Shown: positions 49,151 to 60,251 of the stretch, one piece after another | How positions within the stretch are numbered: position 1 is the first letter of the stretch | Layout: every line of letters begins with the position of its first letter | DNA from: Legionella sp. PATHC032 | GTDB lineage: Bacteria > Pseudomonadota > Gammaproteobacteria > Legionellales > Legionellaceae | Length of the DNA stretch: 64,000 bases | Direction: 5' to 3' | Assembly: GCF_026191185.1 (NCBI RefSeq) | Contig: NZ_JAPHOV010000001.1 | Span: 3,258,501 to 3,322,500, forward strand | Translations under genes and position numbers: made by a program | The notes under the pieces: generated by a model | What the model saw: the letters and a program-made list of their open reading frames with translations, nothing else | Told to the model about the DNA's origin: nothing | Databases searched by the model: none

Positions 49151-50182
49151 ATGTCAAATTACCAATTTACAAAACCTGCAGGACCATTTCGTTTATTCGA
49201 ATTAGCTAAGATTTCTGGTGCTACACTGTATGAAGGTAAAGGAGAAACCTTTACAGTTTCTGGTTTGGCAAAACTTTCAGAAGCCACAAGCAATGATTTG
49301 GTAATGTTGCATCAAAAAAAATACGTCAAAGAATTAAAGCATACAGCTGCTCGTGTTTGTATCATCGGGCCAGACTATGTGAAATATGCCCCTGATAGCA
49401 TGTATTTACTGGTGCACCCCAATCCCTACAAAGCATTTGCTTTGATTGCTCAAGCGTTTTATCCTTCTGAAAAACCACCCGGTTTCATTGCCACTTCGGC
49501 AATGATTGAGTCGAGCGCTATTATTGGCGTGAATTGTTTTATTGCTCATGGGGCTTATATTGGCAATCAGGTTAAAATTGGCAACAGATGCAAAATTGGA
49601 GTAAATACTTATATTGGCGATGCTGTAACCATAGGCGATGATTGTCTTATAGAAGACAACGTCAGCATTAGGCATGCTGTTATAGGGAATAACGTGGTCA
49701 TTTATTCCGGCGCTCGTATAGGCCAGGATGGTTTTGGCTTTGCCAGTGATGCGAATGGCCATTATAAAATTCCCCATGCGGGTGGTGTCATTATTGGCAA
49801 TGATGTTGAAATCGGGGCTAATACCTGCATTGACCGAGGCTCTCTGGATAATACGGTGATTGAAGATTGGTGTCGTCTGGATAATCTTGTGCAGATTGGG
49901 CATAATGTCAAGATTGGTAAAGGCTCTGTCCTAGTGGCTCAAGTTGGAATCGCCGGCAGTACAGAGCTTGGTGAACATGTCACTTTGGCAGGACAAGTTG
50001 GCGTGATTGGACACTTGAAGATTGGTAAAGGCGCCACTGTTTTAGCCAGCGGTAAAGTCTATAAAAATGTGAAATCCGGAGACAGGGTCGGCGGCCACCC
50101 AGCGGTACCAATTAGTGATTGGCAAAAACAAATCCGATTTTTAAAAACAGCGATTAAGCCAAAGAAATCCCCAAAATCCTGA
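49151..50182 (+). CDS. lpxD: UDP-3-O-acylglucosamine N-acyltransferase LpxD
   Basis: A 343-residue lipid A enzyme acting two steps after LpxA. The N-terminal uridine-binding domain (about 1-100) includes SGLAKLSEATSNDLVMLHQKKYVKELKHT. It is followed by a long hexapeptide beta-helix (IGNQVKIGNRCKIGVNTYIGDAVTIGDDC...). The catalytic His is in LVQIGHNVKIGKGSV. The start at 49151 is preceded by AGAG; an upstream GTG at 49145 is less likely. It lies 15 bases after lpxA and overlaps the end of the convergent lpxB by 29 bases. Confidence 0.95.
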   Translation: MSNYQFTKPAGPFRLFELAKISGATLYEGKGETFTVSGLAKLSEATSNDLVMLHQKKYVKELKHTAARVCIIGPDYVKYAPDSMYLLVHPNPYKAFALIAQAFYPSEKPPGFIATSAMIESSAIIGVNCFIAHGAYIGNQVKIGNRCKIGVNTYIGDAVTIGDDCLIEDNVSIRHAVIGNNVVIYSGARIGQDGFGFASDANGHYKIPHAGGVIIGNDVEIGANTCIDRGSLDNTVIEDWCRLDNLVQIGHNVKIGKGSVLVAQVGIAGSTELGEHVTLAGQVGVIGHLKIGKGATVLASGKVYKNVKSGDRVGGHPAVPISDWQKQIRFLKTAIKPKKSPKS

Positions 50183-51305
50183 GGATAGATAAAGCCGCTT
50201 TCTCATTAGCATTTTGCCTTAATGTGCAGTGAATATCAGTAAATTGTTTAATTAGTTCGTTTTGATTGGATGAGTCGAGTAAATTCAGAACTGATTCTGT
50301 AATGCTATCAACATTCGCTTTTTCCTGAACAAATTCAGGGATTAATTTTTTACCAGCCAATAAATTAGGCAACGCAATATAGGGAACTTTTACTTGCGGC
50401 GCGATAATCGCATGAGTAAGTATACCCCATTTAAAGGCAACCACCATGGGTCGTTTTAAAAGCATCGCCTCAAGTGTTGCTGTTCCGGATTTTGTTAAAA
50501 CAACGTCAGAGATAGCCATGGCCTCACGAGCATTCCCTTGAATAATCTGAATTTTTAAGTGGCCATACTCGGCATGGAGTTGTTTAAAAAAAACTGGATA
50601 CAAATCCTGACACGCAATCGGTACTATGAAATGCACATGAGGCCTCTCCACAGCAATTCTTTGCATTACTTCCAAAAATAAGGGCCCCATGTATTTGATT
50701 TCACCTACCCGACTACCAGGTAATACTGCCAGAATGGTGTCATCAGAATGGTAGTTATATTTTTTACGTAAAGTAGAACAACTTGGGTTTATTTCGATTA
50801 AATCAGCTAAAGGATGACCAATAAATTGTGCCGATACCCCATGTTGTCGGTAAAATGCTTCTTCAAATGGAAATAGGGTTAATACTAAATCAACTGCCTT
50901 TTTTATTAAATGCACCCGTTTTTGTCGCCATGCCCAAACTTTGGGGCTCACCAGATGAATGGTTTTAATATGCTGTTTTTTTAACCGTGCTTCAACGGAT
51001 AAATTAAAGTCAGGGTAATCAATCCCAATGAATACATCTGGTGGATTAATTGTCCATTCCCTCAATAACCTTTCTCTTATTAAATACAGTTGAGGATATC
51101 GTCGCAGAACATCACTGATTCCCATCACAGAAAGCTCAGAGATATCAATCAGGGAATGGAAGCCTTCCTTAAGCATTTGAGGACCACCTACCCCCATGAA
51201 TTCTACGTTGGTTAAATGCTGTTTCAGCTCACGAATTACCCCTGCTCCCAGTAAATCTCCAGATAATTCGCCGGCAACCATCGCAATTCGGGTCGGTCTT
51301 TTCAT
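50154..51305 (-). CDS. lpxB: lipid A-disaccharide synthase LpxB
   Basis: A 383-residue GT19 glycosyltransferase joining UDP-2,3-diacylglucosamine and lipid X. Hallmarks are AGELSGDLLGAGVIREL (N-terminus), FMGVGGPQM, PKVWAWRQKRVHLIKKAVDLVLTLFPFEE, LPGSRVGEIKYM, and the C-terminal TKSGTATLEAMLLKRPMVVAFK. The start is the ATG at 51305. It is convergent with lpxD, with overlapping 3' ends, so lpxA-lpxD and lpxB are not one operon even though they act in one pathway. Confidence 0.94.
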   Translation of the reverse strand: MKRPTRIAMVAGELSGDLLGAGVIRELKQHLTNVEFMGVGGPQMLKEGFHSLIDISELSVMGISDVLRRYPQLYLIRERLLREWTINPPDVFIGIDYPDFNLSVEARLKKQHIKTIHLVSPKVWAWRQKRVHLIKKAVDLVLTLFPFEEAFYRQHGVSAQFIGHPLADLIEINPSCSTLRKKYNYHSDDTILAVLPGSRVGEIKYMGPLFLEVMQRIAVERPHVHFIVPIACQDLYPVFFKQLHAEYGHLKIQIIQGNAREAMAISDVVLTKSGTATLEAMLLKRPMVVAFKWGILTHAIIAPQVKVPYIALPNLLAGKKLIPEFVQEKANVDSITESVLNLLDSSNQNELIKQFTDIHCTLRQNANEKAALSILRILGISLA

Positions 51306-51488
51306 AGTCAAATTGCACCAATATAAAATTTAAATGACTCGATGTTAGCCTAAACCAATAACCATAGCCAAGCAGTATTAATCCCGCAAACGCTCAGATT
51401 GCCAATTGAGTATCAGAAAACGCTTTACAAATAATTTTTCAGCCTGGCAAAAATGTCTGCCTGGGCAAGTCCTCTTGGCAAAGATCAT

Positions 51489-52346
51489 CTAGATCTCATT
51501 GTAAAATACCATAGCCGGGCGAGGAGCATTGTATATTTTAAGTTGTCTGACTAATTTTAAATTATTCTTGAATACGTCCCAATGAAAATCAAATAGATGA
51601 AATATCAGAGCAGTGTAGTTATTTGCAAGGAGACATTGAATCTTATCTTTACCGAAGAGTTCTCTTTCCTCTGCCAAATCAGGTTTTATAATAACCAGTT
51701 TTTCAAGCACTATTGGTGTGCTGCAATGTTGATTAGGCTTTAAATCAATATGATGCTTGGATCTTCCATTATAAGAATAGAGTGACTCCAAAGATAATAA
51801 ATGTAGGGCTTCTCTACTATCGTTCCATAATTTCAAACGAGGAAATCCCGGCAATACATGAGGGATATCCTGTTTGAACTCTATGGCTGTTATATCATCT
51901 GCGGCCAATAAAGCGCCTTGTTTTATATGAAATGCAGCTGCCGTAGATTTTCCTGCCCCGGTATGGCCAGAGATGGCAAAAGCAGGTTGACCTGGGTAGC
52001 AAACTGTATTGGCATGCAAAACAATCAAATTTCTCTGCTGGAGCAGGCAGCCAAAACAGGCGCCAGTAAGAAGAATATGAATTGGTGTAGTCAGCTCGAC
52101 GGATTTAATTTGGTATAAAATTGTACTTCCCCCTTCAATATAAAAGCTCCATTGGTTATCGGTAATCCATAGCTGATTTTTTAAAGACGCGTATTTGTTT
52201 CCCAAGCGACTCGCGTTTGTAGGTATATCAGGAATTTCACTGGTTTTACGAATAATGACATCTGGAACACAATAAGAAGTTTGCTCTATTTTTCCAAGTG
52301 GAATGTCACTTTGTATGTTCAATTGATATGCGCGATAGTAAAACAT
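51489..52346 (-). CDS. lasso-peptide kinase (HPr kinase/phosphorylase fold)
   Basis: A 285-residue protein whose C-terminal half has the HprK-like P-loop S126-G-H-T-G-A-G-K-S134 and the acidic pair A-A-D150-D151-I-T, the arrangement of lasso-precursor kinases of the ThcoK/PadeK type. The N-terminal ~100 residues are unlike true HPr kinases and may bind the leader peptide. It is the last gene of the RiPP operon, 29 bases after the exporter. Known relatives phosphorylate serine at the C-terminus of the precursor; some add several phosphates to serine-rich tails. The Ser run of the precursor at 58078-58218 is the obvious substrate. Activity is inferred from sequence and context. Confidence 0.85.
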   Translation of the reverse strand: MFYYRAYQLNIQSDIPLGKIEQTSYCVPDVIIRKTSEIPDIPTNASRLGNKYASLKNQLWITDNQWSFYIEGGSTILYQIKSVELTTPIHILLTGACFGCLLQQRNLIVLHANTVCYPGQPAFAISGHTGAGKSTAAAFHIKQGALLAADDITAIEFKQDIPHVLPGFPRLKLWNDSREALHLLSLESLYSYNGRSKHHIDLKPNQHCSTPIVLEKLVIIKPDLAEERELFGKDKIQCLLANNYTALIFHLFDFHWDVFKNNLKLVRQLKIYNAPRPAMVFYNEI

Positions 52347-52375
52347 AAACGTCTTTATAAAAAATTGATAAATAA

Positions 52376-54178
52376 TTAATTCATAGCAACCGTAGTGTCT
52401 TCAAGAACATTGAAATTTAACGGATACTCCTCTTTTAAATTAAACTTGCCAAAATCGATTATTTCATCCGCATAAACTATGGTACTTTCCCGGTGAGCTA
52501 TTAAAATGACTGTCATGGTCTGTTTTAAAGCAGCAAGCGACTGCATAATAACAGCCTCGCTTTGGGGATCAAGTGCACTGGTTGCCTCATCGAGAATGAG
52601 CAGCGTTGGCGATGACAGTATGGCTCTGGCAATCGCCAGCTTTTGCCGCTCTCCGCCAGATAAATGCACTCCTCTGTCACCAATCATAGTATTCAATCCA
52701 TTGGGCATAGACCTGACCAGGTTTTCAGCATCAACCAGGGCAAGAACTTTCCATAGCTTCTCTTCATTCACATCATTGTTTAGCCACGTGATGTTATTCC
52801 TGATTGAATCATTAAAAAGAAAAATATTTTGAGGAACATAACTAACCCATTTTTTCTTGGAAGTTGCATGTTCCACATCCATTGGAACTACGGACTGGTT
52901 AAAGAGAATTGAGCCATCATCCGGCTTCAACAAGCCCAATATTAAATCGACACTGGTGGATTTCCCAACACCAGATGGGCCTTTTATTGCAGTTATTTTA
53001 TTTCGATGTATGTCAAATGAAACATTTTTTAAAATTGCTTTTTCTCCATAGGAGAAGGAAACTTGCTTTACTTTAATTAATATATCCTTAGGTAATGGTA
53101 CTCGCGTATGAAAGGGTATCACATTTGATGATTCTTTATTCGATAAAAAATCATTTTTAAGGATTAAATAGTTTCGAAACAAGGGAGAAATATTCAATGC
53201 ATAAGACATGCTTTGCTGCATCGTTGATATTCTTCTTATGATTTGATTGTAAACAAATAATAAAACAACCAACGTTGGAATTGAAATCTGTAACAGGGAA
53301 ATGGAAATAAGAAAAATTAAAGTGAACGCGATCGCGCCGATTGCAGTATATCCAAATTTAATTTTCATCTGGTTGCTTAAAAATTTAATGTTATTGTCCA
53401 TCACCTTGAATGAGATATCACGCTCTTGCTTGAGATATTCATGTGTAAGCTCATGAATTTTAGCTATTTTTATTCCTTCAAGAAAATTTGACAAATTGAT
53501 TTGCCTGCTTCTGCTCAGATCAAGTTCTTGTTTTCCCATACCAGCAGAATTTGATTTTTTAAAAAAAATTGCTATCGAAATCACAGTAATTAGCGAAATG
53601 ACTGTTAATCCCGTAGAAAGCATTAAACCAACAATCAAATACACCGAGTTTTTGATTATGTTATTAAATAAACTCAACGTATAAGTCGTTAAAGCAGAGA
53701 TCTTCATCAACCCAACATTCAATACATACTCAGAATCTTTCAGTTTACTTTTTAGCAGGTATTCCCATCGCGCATTCACCAAGTTTTGGATTAAGCTTTC
53801 ACGGCAGTATCTCTCAAAATTTTTCATAAATTTTATTTTTGTTAATTCAGCGAGATAATTGGTCATGGAGACTGAGCATATGATGAGGCAATAAACCGAT
53901 AAGACAAAAGTGATTGGAATTTGGCCATCGTGCATCGGCAATTGTTGCCATAAACTGGATAACCAATTGAGATCAGAGCCGGACTTATTTTGGGCTAGCC
54001 AACCACTATAGCTTAACATTGGCACCAATGAGACCACTCCAACACCGCCCAGAAAGCTTGAAAGAATTACCATTGCTTGTGAAAACACAAGCTGGAATGG
54101 CGAATATTCATATAAAAACCTGATGAAATCGAGAAAGTCTTTATATTTTCCCGCATATTTTTTATAAAATTCAGCCAT
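52376..54178 (-). CDS. ABC exporter for the lasso-type peptide (lasD-like)
   Basis: A 600-residue half-transporter with about six membrane helices (1-~330) fused to an ATPase domain. Walker A is GPSGVGKSTSVDLILG, the Q-loop is VPQNIFLFN, the signature is LSGGERQKLAIARAIL, Walker B is TLLILDEATSALD and the His switch is in LIAHREST. No N-terminal C39 peptidase domain is present, so leader removal must be done by the separate B2 protease. It sits 10 bases after the B2 gene and 29 bases before the kinase. The expected job is export of, and self-protection against, the mature peptide. Confidence 0.93.
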   Translation of the reverse strand: MAEFYKKYAGKYKDFLDFIRFLYEYSPFQLVFSQAMVILSSFLGGVGVVSLVPMLSYSGWLAQNKSGSDLNWLSSLWQQLPMHDGQIPITFVLSVYCLIICSVSMTNYLAELTKIKFMKNFERYCRESLIQNLVNARWEYLLKSKLKDSEYVLNVGLMKISALTTYTLSLFNNIIKNSVYLIVGLMLSTGLTVISLITVISIAIFFKKSNSAGMGKQELDLSRSRQINLSNFLEGIKIAKIHELTHEYLKQERDISFKVMDNNIKFLSNQMKIKFGYTAIGAIAFTLIFLISISLLQISIPTLVVLLFVYNQIIRRISTMQQSMSYALNISPLFRNYLILKNDFLSNKESSNVIPFHTRVPLPKDILIKVKQVSFSYGEKAILKNVSFDIHRNKITAIKGPSGVGKSTSVDLILGLLKPDDGSILFNQSVVPMDVEHATSKKKWVSYVPQNIFLFNDSIRNNITWLNNDVNEEKLWKVLALVDAENLVRSMPNGLNTMIGDRGVHLSGGERQKLAIARAILSSPTLLILDEATSALDPQSEAVIMQSLAALKQTMTVILIAHRESTIVYADEIIDFGKFNLKEEYPLNFNVLEDTTVAMN

Positions 54179-54188
54179 AAAACAACAC

Positions 54189-54659
54189 TTAATTTTTTAC
54201 CCAGTCTAATGCATAAGTACAAAAAATAGTATAACCCACGCCGTTTCCTCCAGTGATATAGTGTTTACCGCACCGCAACCATACGTGCCCTATGACCTCA
54301 TCTCCTTCTCGCTTCATACCAAAATAAATCGTTGTGGGCATATTTTTGCGACGTAATAGCAAAAATGCTGCAACACTTTGCTGTAAACAGGCACTTTTCC
54401 ATGGCAACAATCTATTTATTTTAGGAAACAGTTTTTGGCAACATTTTAGCCAATACAAATGGTCGAAGTCTTCATACAAAGTTTCGGCGTGTTTATGCCC
54501 AAACGACTTGGCATATCTGTTAAACGGATATAACCAGGTAATGATTCTTGATACTATCAGGTAATAAACAATAAGCACAGCAACATGAACTCGTGTTTTT
54601 CCCTTGCCCAATAAAACCAGAAAAAGATGGGCATATCTTATTTTCTTTATTTCAGTCAA
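54189..54659 (-). CDS. lasso-peptide leader protease (B2, transglutaminase-like)
   Basis: A 156-residue protein of the lasso B2 (McjB C-terminal-type) family. The catalytic Cys91 is in KSACLQQSVAAFLLLRRKNMPTTIYFG, and His125 is in GHVWLRCGKHYI (usually HAW). The third member of the triad is normally an Asp about 12 residues after the His; here that region reads ITGGNG, so the acidic residue is not evident. An N-terminal hydrophobic region (about 24-45) could attach it to the membrane. It cleaves the leader at the core start so the cyclase can act. Confidence 0.92.
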   Translation of the reverse strand: MTEIKKIRYAHLFLVLLGKGKTRVHVAVLIVYYLIVSRIITWLYPFNRYAKSFGHKHAETLYEDFDHLYWLKCCQKLFPKINRLLPWKSACLQQSVAAFLLLRRKNMPTTIYFGMKREGDEVIGHVWLRCGKHYITGGNGVGYTIFCTYALDWVKN

Positions 54660-54716
54660 TTGTATTATCCAATTCTGCTTAAAAACTATGACAGCGAATG
54701 ATTATAAATTCTTTAT

Positions 54717-55031
54717 CTATGAACAGACTTTGATTAATTTATGTTGAACCATTTGTTGTATAAACGCTTTAATATCATTAAAGCAGGTATCGAAATCAAC
54801 CTTATATATTTCCATAAGCCCAGAAACAAGTTGGCTCACCGTTTTTTTTGATTCCAACAAATTCCATATTTTGTAACCTACGGAATTAACTACCAAATAA
54901 TGACTCGCTTCTTCATCAAGCAGGATCAAGTCCTCATCAACGCTGGAAAAAAACACCAAGTCATAGCGTTCTAATATTGTATTGGTTTTATATTCGAATT
55001 GATATTTGTGTTGTTGTAAATGGTTACTCAT
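54717..55031 (-). CDS. PqqD-like leader-binding protein (B1, RiPP recognition element)
   Basis: A 104-residue protein starting MSNHLQQHKYQFEY, with GGAG 9 bases upstream; the longer frame to 55070 would run into the cyclase gene. The PqqD-type winged-helix features are FFSSVDEDLILLDEEASHYLVVNSVGYKIWNLLESKKTVSQLVSGLMEIY. In lasso systems B1 binds the leader and presents it to the protease and cyclase. It lies between the cyclase and B2 genes, as in split-B lasso clusters. Confidence 0.92.
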   Translation of the reverse strand: MSNHLQQHKYQFEYKTNTILERYDLVFFSSVDEDLILLDEEASHYLVVNSVGYKIWNLLESKKTVSQLVSGLMEIYKVDFDTCFNDIKAFIQQMVQHKLIKVCS

Positions 55032-55056
55032 CGAGATTATCTCCAGTAAGTAATAA

Positions 55057-56883
55057 TCAATACAGATCATTTAGGTAGTTGATAAAAAATGCTGTGCTTA
55101 AAGCTGGGACCAAATGCATATTAACGTCTTGAAAATTTCTTGATTGCGGACTAATGGGATAATTAGCAAATAAATCCAAAAGGTATTTTTTAGGATAAAT
55201 TTCCCAAATGAGAGGGTGTTTCTCTGCAATATCTGCCAAAAGCCTTCCCCAGGCATGACCATATTTATTGAATTGATAGTACCAATCTGCTGCCTGTTCA
55301 CCGCGATAGGGATTATGGCGGATCTCAGGGGGCACAAGCCCTTCCAGAGCATCTCTCACCAATAAGCGCCTTTTTAATTTGGGCAATCGCCTGATTTCAA
55401 AATATTTGTTACCTCCATGATAAACCCATTCAGGAAGATCATAGCAAAACTGGACCAGATCCAGGTTACTTGTTGGGTCAATCACCTCTACCCCAAACCA
55501 CAAATAGATGGAACGCATGTAACTTCTTGTTTCCAACCTGTTCTTACCTCTCAGGAGAGAATAATGGGGCTCTAAAAAATTTTTTTTCATCTCATTGAGA
55601 TCAGTACGATTTTTTTTCAGGTTTAGCGAGCCAGATTTTATAAATTGCTTGCCTAATTTCATATGGTATTTTAAAAGATGCCGCGTAAATTTTACACGCT
55701 GATTCAGATAGTTGCCCAATGTCACTCCCTTCCATGAAATGGATCCATTCCCCTGTTCACCATTTAAAAGAATCCTGCAGTTTTTGGCTGCTGCCATTTC
55801 CAATCCTGCCAATATCCATTCCATATTGAATACCGCTTTGAATGGCTGATCTAAATAAGGATAAAAGACTTGAAGTTTATCAAAAATACTCAAGTCTTCA
55901 GAGCTTTGATAAACTATTGTTTCAATATTGTCATAGTAACGGCATGCGCTTTGCACCCGATCTAATTCATGATATTTACATCCTTTCCGATGACTATCGC
56001 CCGACAAATATTTAGGAATCGCGGTATATGCCATAAGAGTTTTATTTTCTTTGGCAAGTTGCAAGGCAGCAATCGAAGCAATGGATGAAGAGTCTAAACC
56101 ACCGCTGTAATGGGCCATGATTTCTGCGTCAGTCCGGATACTTTGTCTGATACTTTGCTGAATCTCATTTCTGAATGCACTATAGTAGTCTTCACGCGAT
56201 TGGCATTGTCCTGTCTGTTGTGTCTTACGGAGGTCCCAGTATTGTTGCTCTTGTAAATTTTGGTCGCTAACAATCATATATCTGGCAGCCGTCAGTTTTT
56301 TAACCGATTTCAGGCAAGTTTCCTGACCTATTTTCTGTTTTGCCGCAAGCTTATGGAAAGCGCCATGATTCACCGCTAAGGAGTCATGAAAAACTTTGAA
56401 TGTATTGAATGTATTGCTAAATATAAAGTATTTACCAGGCACAAACAGATAGTAACAGCAACAAAAATTAAAATGATCAATGGCAATAAACAGCCGTTTT
56501 TTGCGTAAGTCATAAAATACAAGGAAAAAATTCCCTGCTAAATAATTCACACATTTTTCACCCCATTTTAAATATGCCCGGGTTGCCAGGTATAAATCCG
56601 AATTTTTGGAGCTAACTCCTAACCAATTTGCCAAACTGGAATGATTAGTTAGATAAAGATCGCCGTTGGCAATTACACCCGATTCCTTATCATGATATGG
56701 AGCTGTTTGTAAGGCGCATTCGGGAGTAATAAAGCGCTGTGTGCTCGCCGTAGCATAAAAATCATTATAATAAAGTTCGCTATGATCCGCTCTCCAAACC
56801 GGGCTATTAAATTTGGCTCGTTCTAATAACTCTCGATCAAATGGTTGCCCGTCAAAACGCAGAACTCCATACAAAGCATTCAT
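55057..56883 (-). CDS. lasso-peptide cyclase (asparagine synthetase-like, C protein)
   Basis: A 608-residue enzyme that would close the macrolactam ring after leader removal. The N-terminal glutaminase-like domain begins MNALYGVLRF instead of MCG, so the glutamine-hydrolysing Cys is absent, as expected for lasso cyclases. The ATP-pyrophosphatase P-loop is S260-G-G-L-D-S-S-S267 and adenylates the side-chain carboxylate. GEQGNGSISWKGV and DPTSNLDLVQFCYDLPEWV continue the synthetase domain. It is the second enzyme gene of the cluster, 141 bases after the nucleotidyltransferase. Confidence 0.93.
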   Translation of the reverse strand: MNALYGVLRFDGQPFDRELLERAKFNSPVWRADHSELYYNDFYATASTQRFITPECALQTAPYHDKESGVIANGDLYLTNHSSLANWLGVSSKNSDLYLATRAYLKWGEKCVNYLAGNFFLVFYDLRKKRLFIAIDHFNFCCCYYLFVPGKYFIFSNTFNTFKVFHDSLAVNHGAFHKLAAKQKIGQETCLKSVKKLTAARYMIVSDQNLQEQQYWDLRKTQQTGQCQSREDYYSAFRNEIQQSIRQSIRTDAEIMAHYSGGLDSSSIASIAALQLAKENKTLMAYTAIPKYLSGDSHRKGCKYHELDRVQSACRYYDNIETIVYQSSEDLSIFDKLQVFYPYLDQPFKAVFNMEWILAGLEMAAAKNCRILLNGEQGNGSISWKGVTLGNYLNQRVKFTRHLLKYHMKLGKQFIKSGSLNLKKNRTDLNEMKKNFLEPHYSLLRGKNRLETRSYMRSIYLWFGVEVIDPTSNLDLVQFCYDLPEWVYHGGNKYFEIRRLPKLKRRLLVRDALEGLVPPEIRHNPYRGEQAADWYYQFNKYGHAWGRLLADIAEKHPLIWEIYPKKYLLDLFANYPISPQSRNFQDVNMHLVPALSTAFFINYLNDLY

Positions 56884-56891
56884 GCTATATC

Positions 56892-57005
56892 CTAAGATAA
56901 AAAATAACTACTAATGTTTGTGCTGCTTAATTTCCAACCAGCCAAAAATGTAACTACCGCAACAGCAAAACTAATAAATTCGTTGCCGGTAGTAGCAAGC
57001 TCCAT
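56892..57005 (-). CDS. possible 37-residue membrane peptide in the RiPP operon
   Basis: A short frame in the only wide gap inside the operon (between nucleotidyltransferase and cyclase). It starts MELATTGNEFISFAVAVV and has one hydrophobic segment followed by a Trp-Lys-Leu-Ser-Ser-rich end. AGAG lies 5 bases before the ATG. It could be an immunity-like or second precursor-like peptide, or chance. Not recognised. Confidence 0.3.
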   Translation of the reverse strand: MELATTGNEFISFAVAVVTFLAGWKLSSTNISSYFLS

Positions 57006-57024
57006 TTCTACTCTAAGCTTTTCA

Positions 57025-57990
57025 TTAAATGTAATAAAATTTGTTCGCCATCATACGTAATATTCTTCTTTTCGAGCGATATGTGCTTTTTGAATGGTAA
57101 ATTAAAGAAATCAGGGCTTTTCTCGTTAAAGAGTTGGGTAGTAAACCTGCATTACCGCTTTCTGTAAACACACTTGGAAATATTCTCTCCGCACAATAAG
57201 TCGCCATTTGATACTCTGTCTGTATGGAAAGACTATTAACCAATTCAACAACTCTTCTGCGGTCATCCTGGCTGAGCAAGGTGGAATAACGGGCAAAATC
57301 ATAAAGCCAGTGCAAAGATTCAAATCCATGATTCGCTCCATGTACAGCGACATACAGATACTCGTCAATAGGGGACAGGGTATAAAATAAATTTTTTCCC
57401 CCCACCAAAATCGGCACTTTATTGTTCCAATAAAACTCAAAAGGCTGATTGAATTTATCTTTCCATCTAAACAAACGCCAGTGGAGTTCGATTTTAATAC
57501 CATATTTTTCAGCCACGTACGAAACATCCTTTAGTACTCGATGTTTCTTTAGCTTATTAACGTCATGTAAGAAACTGTATTTATCCCGAATGATTCCATT
57601 TTCAAAAAACACTTCATCTGCCTGTTCCAAGTGCTGGGGAGAAATATATAAATCGATGTCGCATGACTGACGAATCAAAGGGTCTCCAAACAATTTTTGC
57701 GAGAGTGGTAGTCCTTTCAGGTGAATAACCGGAATATTGTATTGCTGAAAAAGCTCGTTGATTTTGATGGACAAAAATAATTTCCTAATGGCCCTGTCTC
57801 TATTTTCCTTTAAAACGAGCTTAAAGTTAGCGAGTTGAGAAGCAGGAATACCATAGTGCTCCCTTAAAATGGTATAAACCGAATTGGTCAGGCGCATTCT
57901 TTGTGCTGTCTTTAGGATTTCAGGTGCTGAAAATGAAGTCAAGGCGGTTTCATTCGTGTTTAAAATATCAATAAGGTTGCCATATTCCAT
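57025..57990 (-). CDS. nucleotidyltransferase-family protein of the RiPP cluster
   Basis: A 321-residue protein of the uncharacterised NTP_transf_5 family. IPVIHLKGLPLSQKLFGDPLIRQSCDIDLYISP (about 90-122) carries the conserved LKG...D..R...DID nucleotidyl-transfer core, and KIELHWRLF supplies the downstream acidic element. Members occur in lasso-peptide clusters next to the kinase, but their chemistry is not settled. It is the first gene after the precursor (87-base gap, with a hairpin in between). A tailoring role is an inference. Confidence 0.88.
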   Translation of the reverse strand: MEYGNLIDILNTNETALTSFSAPEILKTAQRMRLTNSVYTILREHYGIPASQLANFKLVLKENRDRAIRKLFLSIKINELFQQYNIPVIHLKGLPLSQKLFGDPLIRQSCDIDLYISPQHLEQADEVFFENGIIRDKYSFLHDVNKLKKHRVLKDVSYVAEKYGIKIELHWRLFRWKDKFNQPFEFYWNNKVPILVGGKNLFYTLSPIDEYLYVAVHGANHGFESLHWLYDFARYSTLLSQDDRRRVVELVNSLSIQTEYQMATYCAERIFPSVFTESGNAGLLPNSLTRKALISLIYHSKSTYRSKRRILRMMANKFYYI

Positions 57991-58031
57991 TAATTATCCT
58001 AAAGGCTTGATTGCTGGCGAATCTAAAAAAT

Positions 58032-58077
58032 AGAAAAAGGGTAATTTGTACTTTACTTATAAAGAACCCTTTTCTTT
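58032..58077 (-). terminator. partial terminator/attenuator after the precursor gene
   Basis: On the minus strand GAAAAGGGT, a ~23-base loop, ACCCTTTTTC and then TATTTTTTAG. It sits directly after the precursor stop and before the nucleotidyltransferase start. In RiPP operons such a leaky terminator raises precursor over enzymes. Confidence 0.65.
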
Positions 58078-58218
58078 TTAACCACCTGAACTGCTGCTTG
58101 AGGAAAGGCCGCTTTCACTACTGCCGTCCTGAACGTCAGCTTCCTCAGTGCTAGCGCTAACACTGTCTATTGGTATAGCACAAACCTCAGGCTGCTCCCA
58201 ATTTAACTTATCCATCAT
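58078..58218 (-). CDS. lasso-type RiPP precursor peptide with serine-rich tail
   Basis: A 45-46 residue peptide too short for ordinary gene calling. Two adjacent ATGs (58218 and 58215) occur; AGGAG is 6 bases before the second, which is the better start. The N-terminal part, LNWEQPEVCAIPIDSV, fits the W-x-x-P-x-(V/L/I) leader pattern of paeninodin-type lasso precursors (compare W..P.I..L.I). After it come an acidic segment (STEEADVQDG) and a tail SSESGL followed by six Ser and Gly-Gly. A ring from S (or A) to the Asp at position 9 (or 7) of the core is possible, but the cut site lacks the classic Thr two before it. It leads the cyclase, B1, B2, exporter and kinase operon and is probably its substrate. 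Confidence 0.75.
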   Translation of the reverse strand: MMDKLNWEQPEVCAIPIDSVSASTEEADVQDGSSESGLSSSSSSGG

Positions 58219-58252
58219 CTACTCCTGTATTTCAGACTACTAAACGGCCGCC

Positions 58253-58281
58253 ATTCTAAAATAATTTTTCAAGGCACGCAA
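58253..58281 (-). promoter_or_regulatory. candidate promoter of the RiPP operon
   Basis: On the minus strand TTGCGT (58276-58281), 17 bases, TAGAAT (58253-58258). The -10 matches 5 of 6 consensus bases and the -35 only 3 of 6. The distance to the precursor ATG is about 35 bases. Confidence 0.45.
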
Positions 58282-58455
58282 ATATCAGAAAAAATAACAT
58301 TATGGTTCTAACCAAAACAAGGAGGAATTTCTCTACTGCCATCTTTGATAACTATCAAGGATCATGGCATTTCATACCTATGAGAAAATCTTTTGAACAA
58401 GTTTTAGTTATCCCTCATATAAGTTGATTATGAGGGATAATAAGTAAAACTCTTT

Positions 58456-58722
58456 TTATTGAATTACCGGGAGTTGGGGTGCAGCGGTTCGCTTTGGCCC
58501 AGGAGTAGATTTTTGAGAGGTATCCTTTGACGCATAGCTTTTTTGTTGCGGCTGGGATTGATTGCTAGCGGTGGTTTGTCCTCCACTGGATGGCATGCTA
58601 TTTTCCTGGTAAGAATACCCTCTTTCTTGAGGGCTTGTCCCGTCAAAATAACATCCTGATACCCCTAAAGCAAAGAGCGCAATGAGGCCATATCTCCATT
58701 TTATCGTTTTGTAATTTATCAT
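58456..58722 (-). CDS. small lipoprotein of unknown function
   Basis: An 88-residue precursor with a lipoprotein signal: LIALFALGVSGC, lipobox with Cys24. The mature part is low-complexity, rich in Ser, Gln, Pro, Thr and Lys (QQKSYASKDTSQKSTPGPKR), and probably unstructured in the periplasm. AGGA lies 9 bases before the ATG. No family recognised. It is on the same strand upstream of the RiPP operon, but about 175 bases separate its end from the candidate promoter, so it is not obviously part of it. Confidence 0.75.
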   Translation of the reverse strand: MINYKTIKWRYGLIALFALGVSGCYFDGTSPQERGYSYQENSMPSSGGQTTASNQSQPQQKSYASKDTSQKSTPGPKRTAAPQLPVIQ

Positions 58723-58781
58723 AATTAAGCTTCCTGCATTCGTTAATTAAACAAAATATCAATTGAAATGAATTATTGTAA

Positions 58782-58997
58782 CTATTTGAAAACACTTTGG
58801 ATTTTTGCCATTTTTGTAAAACAGATAGAAATCCGTTTTTTGATCTCAATTAATAAGTAATGTTTTTCTGTTTTTACAAAAATAACCAACGCCCACAATA
58901 AATATAATGTAAAAAAGGAGAAATAACCATAAAAACGAAGTATCCCTGCATTAATAAGGAGGATATCACAAATATAAACTGCCAAGATGATTTGCAT
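58782..58997 (-). CDS. possible small membrane protein
   Basis: A 71-residue frame with one or two hydrophobic segments (MQIILAVYICDILLINAGI and YFSFFTLYLLWALVIFV) and a basic C-terminus. GGAAAG precedes the ATG closely. A second frame overlaps it (58643-58849). AT-rich DNA makes hydrophobic frames by chance, so the call is weak. The remaining gap from 58723 to 59300 holds only the repeat element at 59008. Confidence 0.3.
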   Translation of the reverse strand: MQIILAVYICDILLINAGILRFYGYFSFFTLYLLWALVIFVKTEKHYLLIEIKKRISICFTKMAKIQSVFK

Positions 58998-59007
58998 TTC
59001 TTTCCAA

Positions 59008-59207
59008 TAAACGCGAGTTATGGATCAATATAGGTCATTATCTTGTATCGTTAGGGCTGACGAGGCATTTAGGCTGTCTTGAAGCCTTGCCTGAAATTTG
59101 ATGTTTGGTACCAAGGCTTCGAGACGATGCTTACGCATCTCCCCAGCCCAAACGAATATTGGATATCGACTGCTTCTTATATAATTCTTATCTATAAACC
59201 ACGTTAA
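59008..59207. mobile_element. MITE-like palindromic element, copy 2 (diverged)
   Basis: Ends TAAACGCGAGTTATGGAT and TCTATAAACCACGTTAA resemble the 20-bp ends of the 21934 element with several changes. The interior again contains AAGGCTTCGAGACGATGCT and AGGGCTGACGAGGCATTTAGG, forming the same fold. It lies upstream of the cystathionine beta-synthase-like gene. Confidence 0.75.
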
Positions 59208-59300
59208 TAAGAGAAAATAACTGGATTGTAGAAACCACCATTTTGCTATTTTACCTTATCCGCTTATAATCAACTTATTTCACCATGACAAAGGACTACC

Positions 59301-60251
59301 ATGATTTACCCTAACATACTGGCTACTATAGGCCATACTCCCGTTGTAAAAATTAACAGACTGGGAAAAGATCTGGAATGTGAGCTGTATGCCAAATGCG
59401 AATTCTTTAATCCTGGCGGCTCTGTAAAGGATCGTATTGGCTATGAAATGGTAACAAAGGCAGAAAAGGAAGGGAGAATTAAACCAGGAGATACCTTGAT
59501 CGAGCCTACTTCCGGGAATACCGGGATAGGTATAGCCTTGGCAGGCGCTGTATTAGGCTACAAAGTGATTATTACCATGCCCGAAAAAATGAGCCAGGAA
59601 AAGCAATCTGTGCTTGAGCGGCTGGGAGCCATCATTTATCGAACGCCAACAGAAGCAGCCTATAATGATCCAGACAGTCATATTTCTCTGGCTAAAAAAT
59701 TACAAGCTGAAATCCCTAACTCCCATATCCTTGATCAATACGCCAACCCTAATAACCCCAATGCCCATTATTTTCGGACCGCTCAGGAAATTATTGACGA
59801 CTTCGGAAAAGATTTGCATATGGTTGTTGCTGGCGTTGGGACAGGCGGAACAATTACAGGCATTGCCAAACGCCTTAAAGAATTTAACCCTGCCATCAAA
59901 ATCATTGGAGCAGATCCCGAAGGCTCGATTCTCGGTGGCGGCACAGAAGTCAAATCTTATCATGTTGAAGGGATAGGTTATGACTTCTTCCCTGATGTGC
60001 TGGATAATACGTTGATTGATGCCTACATAAAAACCAATGATGCGGATTCTTTCCGTACTGCCAGACGCCTCATTAAAGAAGAAGGACTGTTAATAGGCGG
60101 CTCATGTGGAGCAGCCATGTGGGCCGCATTGCAAGCAGCCAAATCCTTAAGCAAAGGACAAAAATGTCTGGTGATTTTACCCGACTCTATTCGTAATTAC
60201 ATGTCCAAATTTGCCAATGATGAATGGATGAAAGAAATGGGCTTTCTTTAA
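59301..60251 (+). CDS. cystathionine beta-synthase-like PLP enzyme (catalytic core only)
   Basis: A 316-residue fold-type II PLP enzyme of the cysteine synthase/cystathionine beta-synthase family. The PLP-lysine is in [11 protein letters not shown] (about residue 43). The substrate-binding loop is [14 protein letters not shown], and the phosphate-binding loop is [29 protein letters not shown] favours cystathionine beta-synthase over CysK/CysM. The C-terminal CBS regulatory pair found in eukaryotic enzymes is absent. A good AAGGA ribosome site precedes the ATG. It would condense serine (or O-acetylserine) with homocysteine or sulfide. Confidence 0.92.

What the first reader, a model, noticed from the sequence alone, without database searches (positions are those of the whole stretch)
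51489..58218. A complete lasso-peptide-type RiPP cluster with an overlooked precursor gene
Seven same-strand genes form the set expected for a kinase-bearing lasso cluster: precursor, nucleotidyltransferase, ATP-dependent cyclase without the glutaminase Cys, PqqD-like B1, Cys/His B2 protease, ABC exporter without a C39 domain, HprK-fold kinase. The precursor is only 45-46 codons and is easily missed. Phosphorylating lasso clusters are described mainly from Firmicutes and a few proteobacteria; one in Legionella, an intracellular pathogen, would be unusual.
Basis: partly seen in the sequence, partly recalled or inferred. Interest (0 to 1): 0.88.

Follow-up and report, generated by a model that had tools for sequence, protein, structure and literature searches.

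The report
Strain-variable lasso-peptide cluster in Legionella
A seven-gene Legionella cluster most likely makes a knotted (lasso) peptide decorated with phosphate and perhaps sugar; the gene kit is a known type, but the peptide's ring differs sharply between strains and its serine-rich tail breaks the usual rules.

Summary
The seven intact same-strand genes are present as described and form a lasso-type RiPP cluster of the kinase plus nucleotidyltransferase kind. B2 passes the lasso B2 model; B1's best solved relative is the lasso RRE TbiB1; the kinase keeps the eight residues reported for lasso kinases. Fifteen distinct precursors (the window plus 14 homologues, ten named "lasso peptide" of L. 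pneumophila) share a leader ending SV[S/T]A, then a hypervariable stretch (core 1-8, 27% mean identity), an aspartate at core 9 (8 in one shortened allele) and a conserved SGL-Ser tail. This fits a ring from residue 1 to Asp9.

The peptide is what departs: C-terminal Ser, the usual kinase target, is in 4 of 15 alleles against 40 of 40 control precursors from kinase-bearing loci; a bulky plug residue is in 0 of 15 tails against 37 of 40 controls; residue 1 is Asp, Asn or Ser. A few other precursors share single departures. Threading, modification sites and function are inferred. Of 45 genomes of this genus only the window's gave a cyclase or transferase match.

The parts
58078..58215 (-). precursor A, 45 aa (46 aa if the upstream ATG at 58218 is used); AGGAG just upstream
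   Evidence: 14 homologues are listed from the second Met
58153..58215 (-). leader, 21 aa, with WEQPEV (WxxPx[LV] RRE motif) and, in the register preferred here, Ser at -2 and Ala at -1
   Evidence: motif from sections 6 and 9 of PMC13381572
58126..58152 (-). core residues 1-9, proposed macrolactam ring (Ser1 amine to Asp9 side chain); positions 1-8 hypervariable among homologues
58081..58125 (-). Ser/Gly-rich tail, core residues 10-24; S14, G15, L16 and S18 invariant in 15 of 15
58010..58090 (-). hairpin with U-rich 3' side between precursor and next gene, possible partial terminator
   Evidence: fold z -2.40, 4 of 200 shuffles as stable; not listed by the consensus terminator scan
57025..57990 (-). 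N: PF14907 nucleotidyltransferase-like protein (PsmN/BsfN type)
   Evidence: 191.6 bits, cut-off 31.2
55057..56883 (-). C: asparagine-synthetase-like macrolactam cyclase, SGGLDS loop kept, glutaminase Cys2 replaced by Asn
54717..55070 (-). B1: PqqD-fold RiPP recognition element
   Evidence: PF05402 63.8 bits; best PDB matches TbiB1 5v1u E 2.3e-8 and lasso PqqD chaperone 9x90 E 5.5e-6
54189..54659 (-). B2: leader peptidase, Cys91 and His125
   Evidence: NF033537 60.2 bits, cut-off 33; both residues in 26 of 26 aligned sequences
52376..54178 (-). D: ABC exporter without a peptidase-domain match
51489..52346 (-). K: HprK-like lasso precursor kinase; H111, G127, G130, G132, K133, S134, D150, D151
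   Evidence: all eight in 26 of 26 aligned sequences; profile with 27 relatives matches HPr kinase 1jb1 best, E 4.4e-7, with other P-loop proteins close behind

Best explanation
A complete lasso-peptide biosynthetic cluster of the phosphorylating (paeninodin / pseudomycoidin / bsf) kind. B1 binds the WxxPxV leader and presents the precursor to kinase K, which phosphorylates a serine, probably in the conserved SGL-Ser tail. N adds a sugar or nucleotide group to that phosphate. B2 cuts after Ala21. C adenylates Asp9 and joins it to the amine of core residue 1, giving a nine-residue ring, presumably around the tail. D exports the product. Shown here by sequence: gene set, families, catalytic residues, leader motif, conserved Asp9. 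Inferred from relatives: each reaction, threading, export. The variable ring suggests a product under diversifying selection, most simply an antagonistic peptide against related bacteria.
For: B2 over the lasso B2 cut-off. B1 nearest TbiB1 and another lasso RRE among solved structures. Kinase catalytic set complete in 26 of 26, matching the eight residues listed for lasso kinases in PMC10368454 (passages). Asp at core 9 in 14 of 14 full-length cores and at 8 in the one shortened core; 0 of 20,000 within-sequence shuffles of the 14 gave Asp9 in all. Leader 93.7% and tail 14-21 90.5% mean identity around a core 1-8 of 26.7%, so Asp9 is kept inside a variable stretch. Candidate precursors near cyclase and kinase genes elsewhere show the same register: VTA|SIFATSGND in L179, DTA|NTLGSGAD in L100. 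Of 79 loci fetched by cyclase similarity, 42 also show kinase and B2 and 22 show all six enzyme/transport genes (recount), 18 of these 22 from Bacillota by record title, so this gene company is a recurring set.
Against: No product is shown, and threading cannot be read from sequence. Cyclase and B1 fall below curated lasso cut-offs. Residue -2 is Ser in 7 of 15, including the window. C-terminal Ser is in only 4 of 15, so the usual kinase target is missing in the window's own peptide. No tail has F, W, Y, H, R or K (0 of 15), so nothing obvious locks a thread. The Trp-to--2 spacing is 14, not the usual 13. The homologues came without genomic context, so that each allele sits beside these enzymes is assumed. 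The shuffle test ignores the relatedness of the sequences.
Confidence: 0.78

Rival explanations
1. The enzymes make the ring, but the tail is not held in it: the product is a branched-cyclic, heavily phosphorylated (and perhaps sugar-bearing) serine-tailed peptide, not a true lasso.
For: 0 of 15 tails have F, W, Y, H, R or K after the ring, against 37 of 40 control precursors from kinase-bearing loci; the largest residue conserved in all tails is Leu16.
Against: Modified serines could act as plugs; all lasso machinery genes are kept. 3 of 40 controls also lack such residues, and so do the candidate precursors of L100 and L050.
Confidence: 0.2
2. Other register: Val19 at -2 and Ala21 as core residue 1, giving a ten-residue ring to the same aspartate (nine in P0130).
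For: Most W-type candidates have 13 residues from Trp to the -2 Thr (51 at spacing 13 against 8 at 14), which would put Val19 at -2; Ala21 is invariant; Ile/Val at -2 is published (PMC10368454 passages).
Against: Spacing 14 exists elsewhere, including L179 with VTA|S...D9 and L100 with DTA|N...D8; position 20 is only ever Ser or Thr; 37 of 42 controls have the acid at 9, although their selection pattern demands an acid at 7-9.
Confidence: 0.12
3. A decaying or silent cluster kept by chance.
For: Cyclase and transferase matched in only 1 of 45 genomes of the genus; no expression data.
Against: Seven intact ORFs; catalytic residues and Asp9 kept while neighbouring core positions vary.
Confidence: 0.04

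Closest known systems
bsf lasso cluster of Bradymonas sediminis (PMC10368454, passages seen)
   Same: Same seven genes A, B1, B2, C, D, K, N in a Gram-negative; phosphorylation not at the C-terminus (Ser3 in the ring); precursor without C-terminal Ser.
   Different: YxxPxL leader with Ile at -2 and a Gly1-Asp8 ring; Legionella has WxxPxV, Ser/Thr at -2, a predicted nine-residue ring and a Ser-rich tail.
Paeninodin and pseudomycoidin (Bacillota; review PMC9266682, passages seen)
   Same: HprK-like kinase and, in pseudomycoidin, a nucleotidyltransferase-like protein that adds hexose to the phospho-Ser; W-type leader is near-invariant in paeninodin-like precursors (PMC13381572, section 9).
   Different: Their kinases modify the C-terminal Ser; the window's peptide ends Gly-Gly and C-terminal Ser is kept in 4 of 15 alleles.
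Linear polyphosphorylated peptides, LPP (PMC13381572, outline and sections 6 and 9 read)
   Same: RRE, HprK-like kinase, NTP transferase, MsbA-like exporter; conserved N-terminus with variable C-terminus.
   Different: LPP sets lack the macrolactam cyclase and use a signal-peptidase-like protease and a YxxP leader; the window has cyclase, B2 and WxxP.
Metanodin (PMC12670498, passages seen)
   Same: Asn assigned as ring residue 1, as in 3 of the 15 Legionella alleles.
   Different: Soil metagenome cluster; 9 of 15 Legionella alleles would have Asp1.

Membership tests
Lasso peptide cluster | B2 leader peptidase with Cys/His | tested here: met
   NF033537 60.2 bits, cut-off 33; Cys91, His125 in 26 of 26; the third residue of the triad was not identified
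Lasso peptide cluster | B1 RRE of lasso type | tested here: inconclusive
   PqqD passed; lasso-specific NF033536 53.6 bits, cut-off 80; nearest PDB TbiB1
Lasso peptide cluster | asparagine-synthetase-like cyclase without glutaminase Cys | tested here: met
   Asn_synthase and GATase_7 over cut-off, Asn2, SGGLDS
Lasso peptide cluster | cyclase over NCBI's curated lasso cyclase model | tested here: not met
   NF033535 (an 'exception' type model, so a narrow one) is the best match but 147.9 bits, cut-off 525
Lasso peptide cluster | [Y/W]xxPx[L/V/I/F/A] leader motif | tested here: met
   WE[LQ]PEV in 15 of 15
Lasso peptide cluster | Thr at leader position -2 | tested here: inconclusive
   Thr 8, Ser 7 of 15; the window has Ser
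Lasso peptide cluster | Asp/Glu at core position 7-9 | tested here: met
   Asp9 in 14, Asp8 in 1 of 15, in the preferred register
Lasso peptide cluster | threaded lariat product | not testable with these tools
   needs the isolated product
Phosphorylating (paeninodin-type) lasso | HprK-like kinase with H-K-D-D motif | tested here: met
   26 of 26; the window kinase alone is below curated HprK cut-offs
Phosphorylating (paeninodin-type) lasso | C-terminal Ser in the precursor | tested here: not met
   4 of 15, window Gly; controls 40 of 40 in kinase-bearing loci, 41 of 42 in all
LPP (linear) | no cyclase; signal-peptidase-like protease | tested here: not met
   cyclase present and no such protease among the seven genes

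The most novel reading that the evidence does not exclude
L. pneumophila carries a strain-typed lasso peptide whose ring, not its tail, is diversified, and whose thread has no bulky residue and is locked by enzyme-installed phosphate or phospho-sugar groups on a conserved serine-rich tail: a plug made after translation. It might also be the first with Asp as ring residue 1.
Probability: 0.2. Interest if true: 0.78.

Novelty: new variant of a known kind. Interest (0 to 1): 0.52.

Why it matters
I saw no established purpose for the phosphate and sugar groups on lasso peptides in the passages I read. A natural series in which the bulky plugs and the C-terminal Ser are mostly gone while kinase and transferase are kept would make a structural role for those groups testable. 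Ring hypervariability among alleles named from one species is the pattern expected of a peptide in an arms race, which would point to competition among amoeba- and biofilm-dwelling bacteria.

Tried and rejected
Considered and rejected: ordinary asparagine synthetase (the genome has a separate match at C1:2070108, and this gene sits in the RiPP operon with Asn2). LPP-type linear peptide (cyclase and B2 present). The 88-aa lipoprotein-like ORF 58722-58456 as a cluster member: by eye a homologue sits beside the same neighbour gene in G029, and G029 gave no cyclase or transferase match.

Led nowhere: first genome-contig scan with the transferase found no relative; viral-contig scan with the cyclase alignment found none; the plasmid search gave 3 distant records. 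PDB search with the kinase alone gave 2 meaningless matches. NCBIfam scan of the 13 precursors of A1, 0 families; Pfam, 2 weak chance-like ones (P0133 and P0134 were not in these scans). GC of the cluster (0.33-0.39) is not remarkable against its flanks. The promoter scan found 15 sites, below the shuffle mean of 26.7. dN/dS could not be computed: DNA of the other alleles was not reached.

Limits of the counts: the 42 control precursors were picked by a pattern that already requires Trp, Thr at spacing 13 and an acid at core 7-9, from loci fetched by cyclase similarity; 40 of the 42 lie in loci with a kinase match. Only their C-terminal residue and tail content are free measurements. Some loci are near-duplicates (L081, L082). 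Against my reading of the C-terminus: other candidates also lack a C-terminal Ser (L054, L071 and L100, that is 3 of the 5 spacing-14 candidates L054, L071, L098, L100, L179), as does published BsfA, so this is not unique to Legionella.

Papers: PMC13381572 outline and sections 6 and 9; PMC9266682, PMC10368454, PMC9576775, PMC3423634, PMC8831229, PMC12670498 and PMC10132079 passages only; PMC6993621 and PMC4919450 not held. In the listings of the searches for Legionella with lasso peptide and with RiPP, no title or shown start of abstract describes a Legionella lasso peptide; most of these papers were not opened. PMC9576775 reports a different RiPP, a graspetide, from L. pneumophila (passages).
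Full report
What is there. On the minus strand, between an lpxB-like and a cysteine-synthase-like gene (names from the sequence by eye, no family scan), lie seven intact genes with short gaps: precursor, PF14907 nucleotidyltransferase, asparagine-synthetase-like cyclase, PqqD-type B1, B2, ABC exporter and kinase. Family scans support each enzyme except the kinase, which on its own falls below every curated HprK cut-off; the precursor matches no family. Aligned with 25 relatives the kinase keeps H111, G127, G130, G132, K133, S134, D150 and D151 in 26 of 26 sequences. These correspond to the eight positions listed for lasso kinases in PMC10368454 (passages). A profile of 28 kinases matches solved HPr kinase best (1jb1, E 4.4e-7), with ABC ATPases and other P-loop proteins following at E 2e-6 and above. 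B1's best solved relative is the lasso RRE TbiB1. B2 passes the lasso B2 model and keeps its Cys and His.

Origin. Named homologues are from L. pneumophila: cyclases 94% and 91% identical and ten precursor clusters. The precursor cluster nearest to the window (P0121, 96%) has no name. The window is therefore L. pneumophila or a very near relative. In 45 genomes of the genus the transferase occurs only in the window's genome (1 of 45). In a set of 92 genomes that includes those 45, the cyclase search at E 1e-20 matched 4: the window's own, two of the same family and one of the same class.

The precursor. Two protein searches gave 14 homologous clusters in all; NCBI of them 'lasso peptide', so the gene is not overlooked there. 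With the window that makes 15 sequences, all used. The leader MDKL[ND]WE[LQ]PEVCA[IM]PIDSV[ST]A is 93.7% identical on average. Core positions 1-8 are 26.7% identical. Position 9 is Asp in 14, and in P0130, one residue shorter, Asp is at 8. Positions 10-13 are 44.5% and 14-21 are 90.5% identical (SGL[SP]S..). The searches use words from the whole short protein, but the only long conserved block is the leader, so Asp9 was hardly selected for. In 20,000 within-sequence shuffles of the 14 full-length cores Asp9 was never universal; the sequences are related, so this is not a true probability.

Register. The preferred reading puts Ser/Thr at -2, Ala at -1 and a ring from residue 1 to Asp9. Trp to -2 is then 14 residues. 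In the fetched loci 51 W-type candidate ORFs have 13 and 8 have 14 (some are probably chance). Among the eight, L054, L071, L098, L100 and L179 lie close to cyclase genes, with kinase genes also seen in L054, L071, L100 and L179; L179 reads VTA|SIFATSGND and L100 DTA|NTLGSGAD. A sixth, in L042, ends 10 bases before its cyclase ORF. The alternative (Val at -2, ten-residue ring) is kept as a rival. Of the eight nearest cyclase relatives L036-L043, six have a W..P precursor-like ORF in the neighbourhood: L042 and L043 just before the cyclase, L038 between B2 and kinase genes, L039 at the start of the kinase gene, L037 about 2.3 kb upstream, and L036 overlapping the cyclase's 3' end on the other strand, which is weaker. 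None convincing was seen in L040 or L041.

Gene company. Of 79 loci fetched by cyclase similarity, 42 also show kinase and B2 and 22 show all six enzyme/transport genes by tblastn with the window's proteins; 18 of the 22 are Bacillota by title. The set is thus a recurring one, as the literature says.

What is odd. First, the C-terminal Ser, the kinase target in paeninodin-type peptides (review PMC9266682, passages), is present in 4 of 15 alleles (Gly 10, Val 1). In the control precursors it is present in 41 of 42, and in 40 of 40 of those in loci with a kinase match. It is not unique: L054, L071 and L100 also end otherwise, and BsfA ends in Asp and is phosphorylated at Ser3. In the Legionella core Ser14 and Ser18 are invariant and positions 19 and 21 are always Ser or Thr, so the tail is my best guess for the site. 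Second, no tail has F, W, Y, H, R or K (0 of 15), against 39 of 42 controls, or 37 of 40 with a kinase match. That large residues lock the thread is general knowledge, not a call. Third, residue 1 is Asp in 9, Ser in 3 and Asn in 3; PMC12670498 (passages) calls Asn unreported at this position before and names Gly, Cys, Ser and Ala as observed ones. Asp1 as a first is inference from that. In the controls residue 1 is also varied, with Asn in 8 of 42.

Mechanism. Steps by analogy: B1 binds the WxxPxV leader; K phosphorylates; N adds hexose, or a nucleotide first (the review leaves both open for PsmN); B2 cleaves; C forms the lactam; D exports. A hairpin after the precursor gene (z -2.40) may raise precursor output over the enzymes; the consensus scan did not list it. 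Function is inference: a variable ring between conserved ends suggests diversifying selection, as expected for antagonism among close relatives, but dN/dS was not computable here. Published lasso clusters in amoeba symbionts such as Amoebophilus (passages of PMC8831229) make a role in or around amoebae a fair alternative.

Judgement. The cluster belongs to a known kind and its gene set has a published Gram-negative twin (bsf). The peptide fails a tested feature of the paeninodin type (C-terminal Ser), so I file it as a variant of the phosphorylating lasso kind, not as a paeninodin-type member.

Noticed in passing
window 50154-60251; L250-L257: Around the cysteine-synthase-like gene, other genomes of the genus hold different cargo between it and the lpx set (gene kinds judged by eye, no family scan), as if it were a variable site.
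   Followed up: partly
L036, L037, L040, L041, L042, L043: Six of the eight cyclases closest to the window's, in Legionellaceae, Coxiellaceae and other MAGs, show no B1, B2, kinase or transferase nearby by tblastn, yet in 4 of these 6 (L036, L037, L042, L043) a W..P precursor-like ORF lies in the neighbourhood. In L037 and L041 the cyclase starts 5 bases after a 754- or 760-aa gene with no Pfam match.
   Followed up: partly
L050:5640-5789:-: A Caulobacter MAG precursor-like ORF ends ...NTVNSGPDSSSSS, resembling Legionella cores such as NTDNSGADD and also ending in a run of serines.
   Followed up: partly
L071, L054: Chloroflexota and unassigned MAG loci with kinase, and a spacing-14 SLDT leader and GSGxD ring motif in precursors that do not end in Ser.
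   Followed up: no
L087, L094, L108: Cyanobacterial loci carry two or three YxxP precursor-like ORFs each, with Tyr-to-Thr spacing 15.
   Followed up: no
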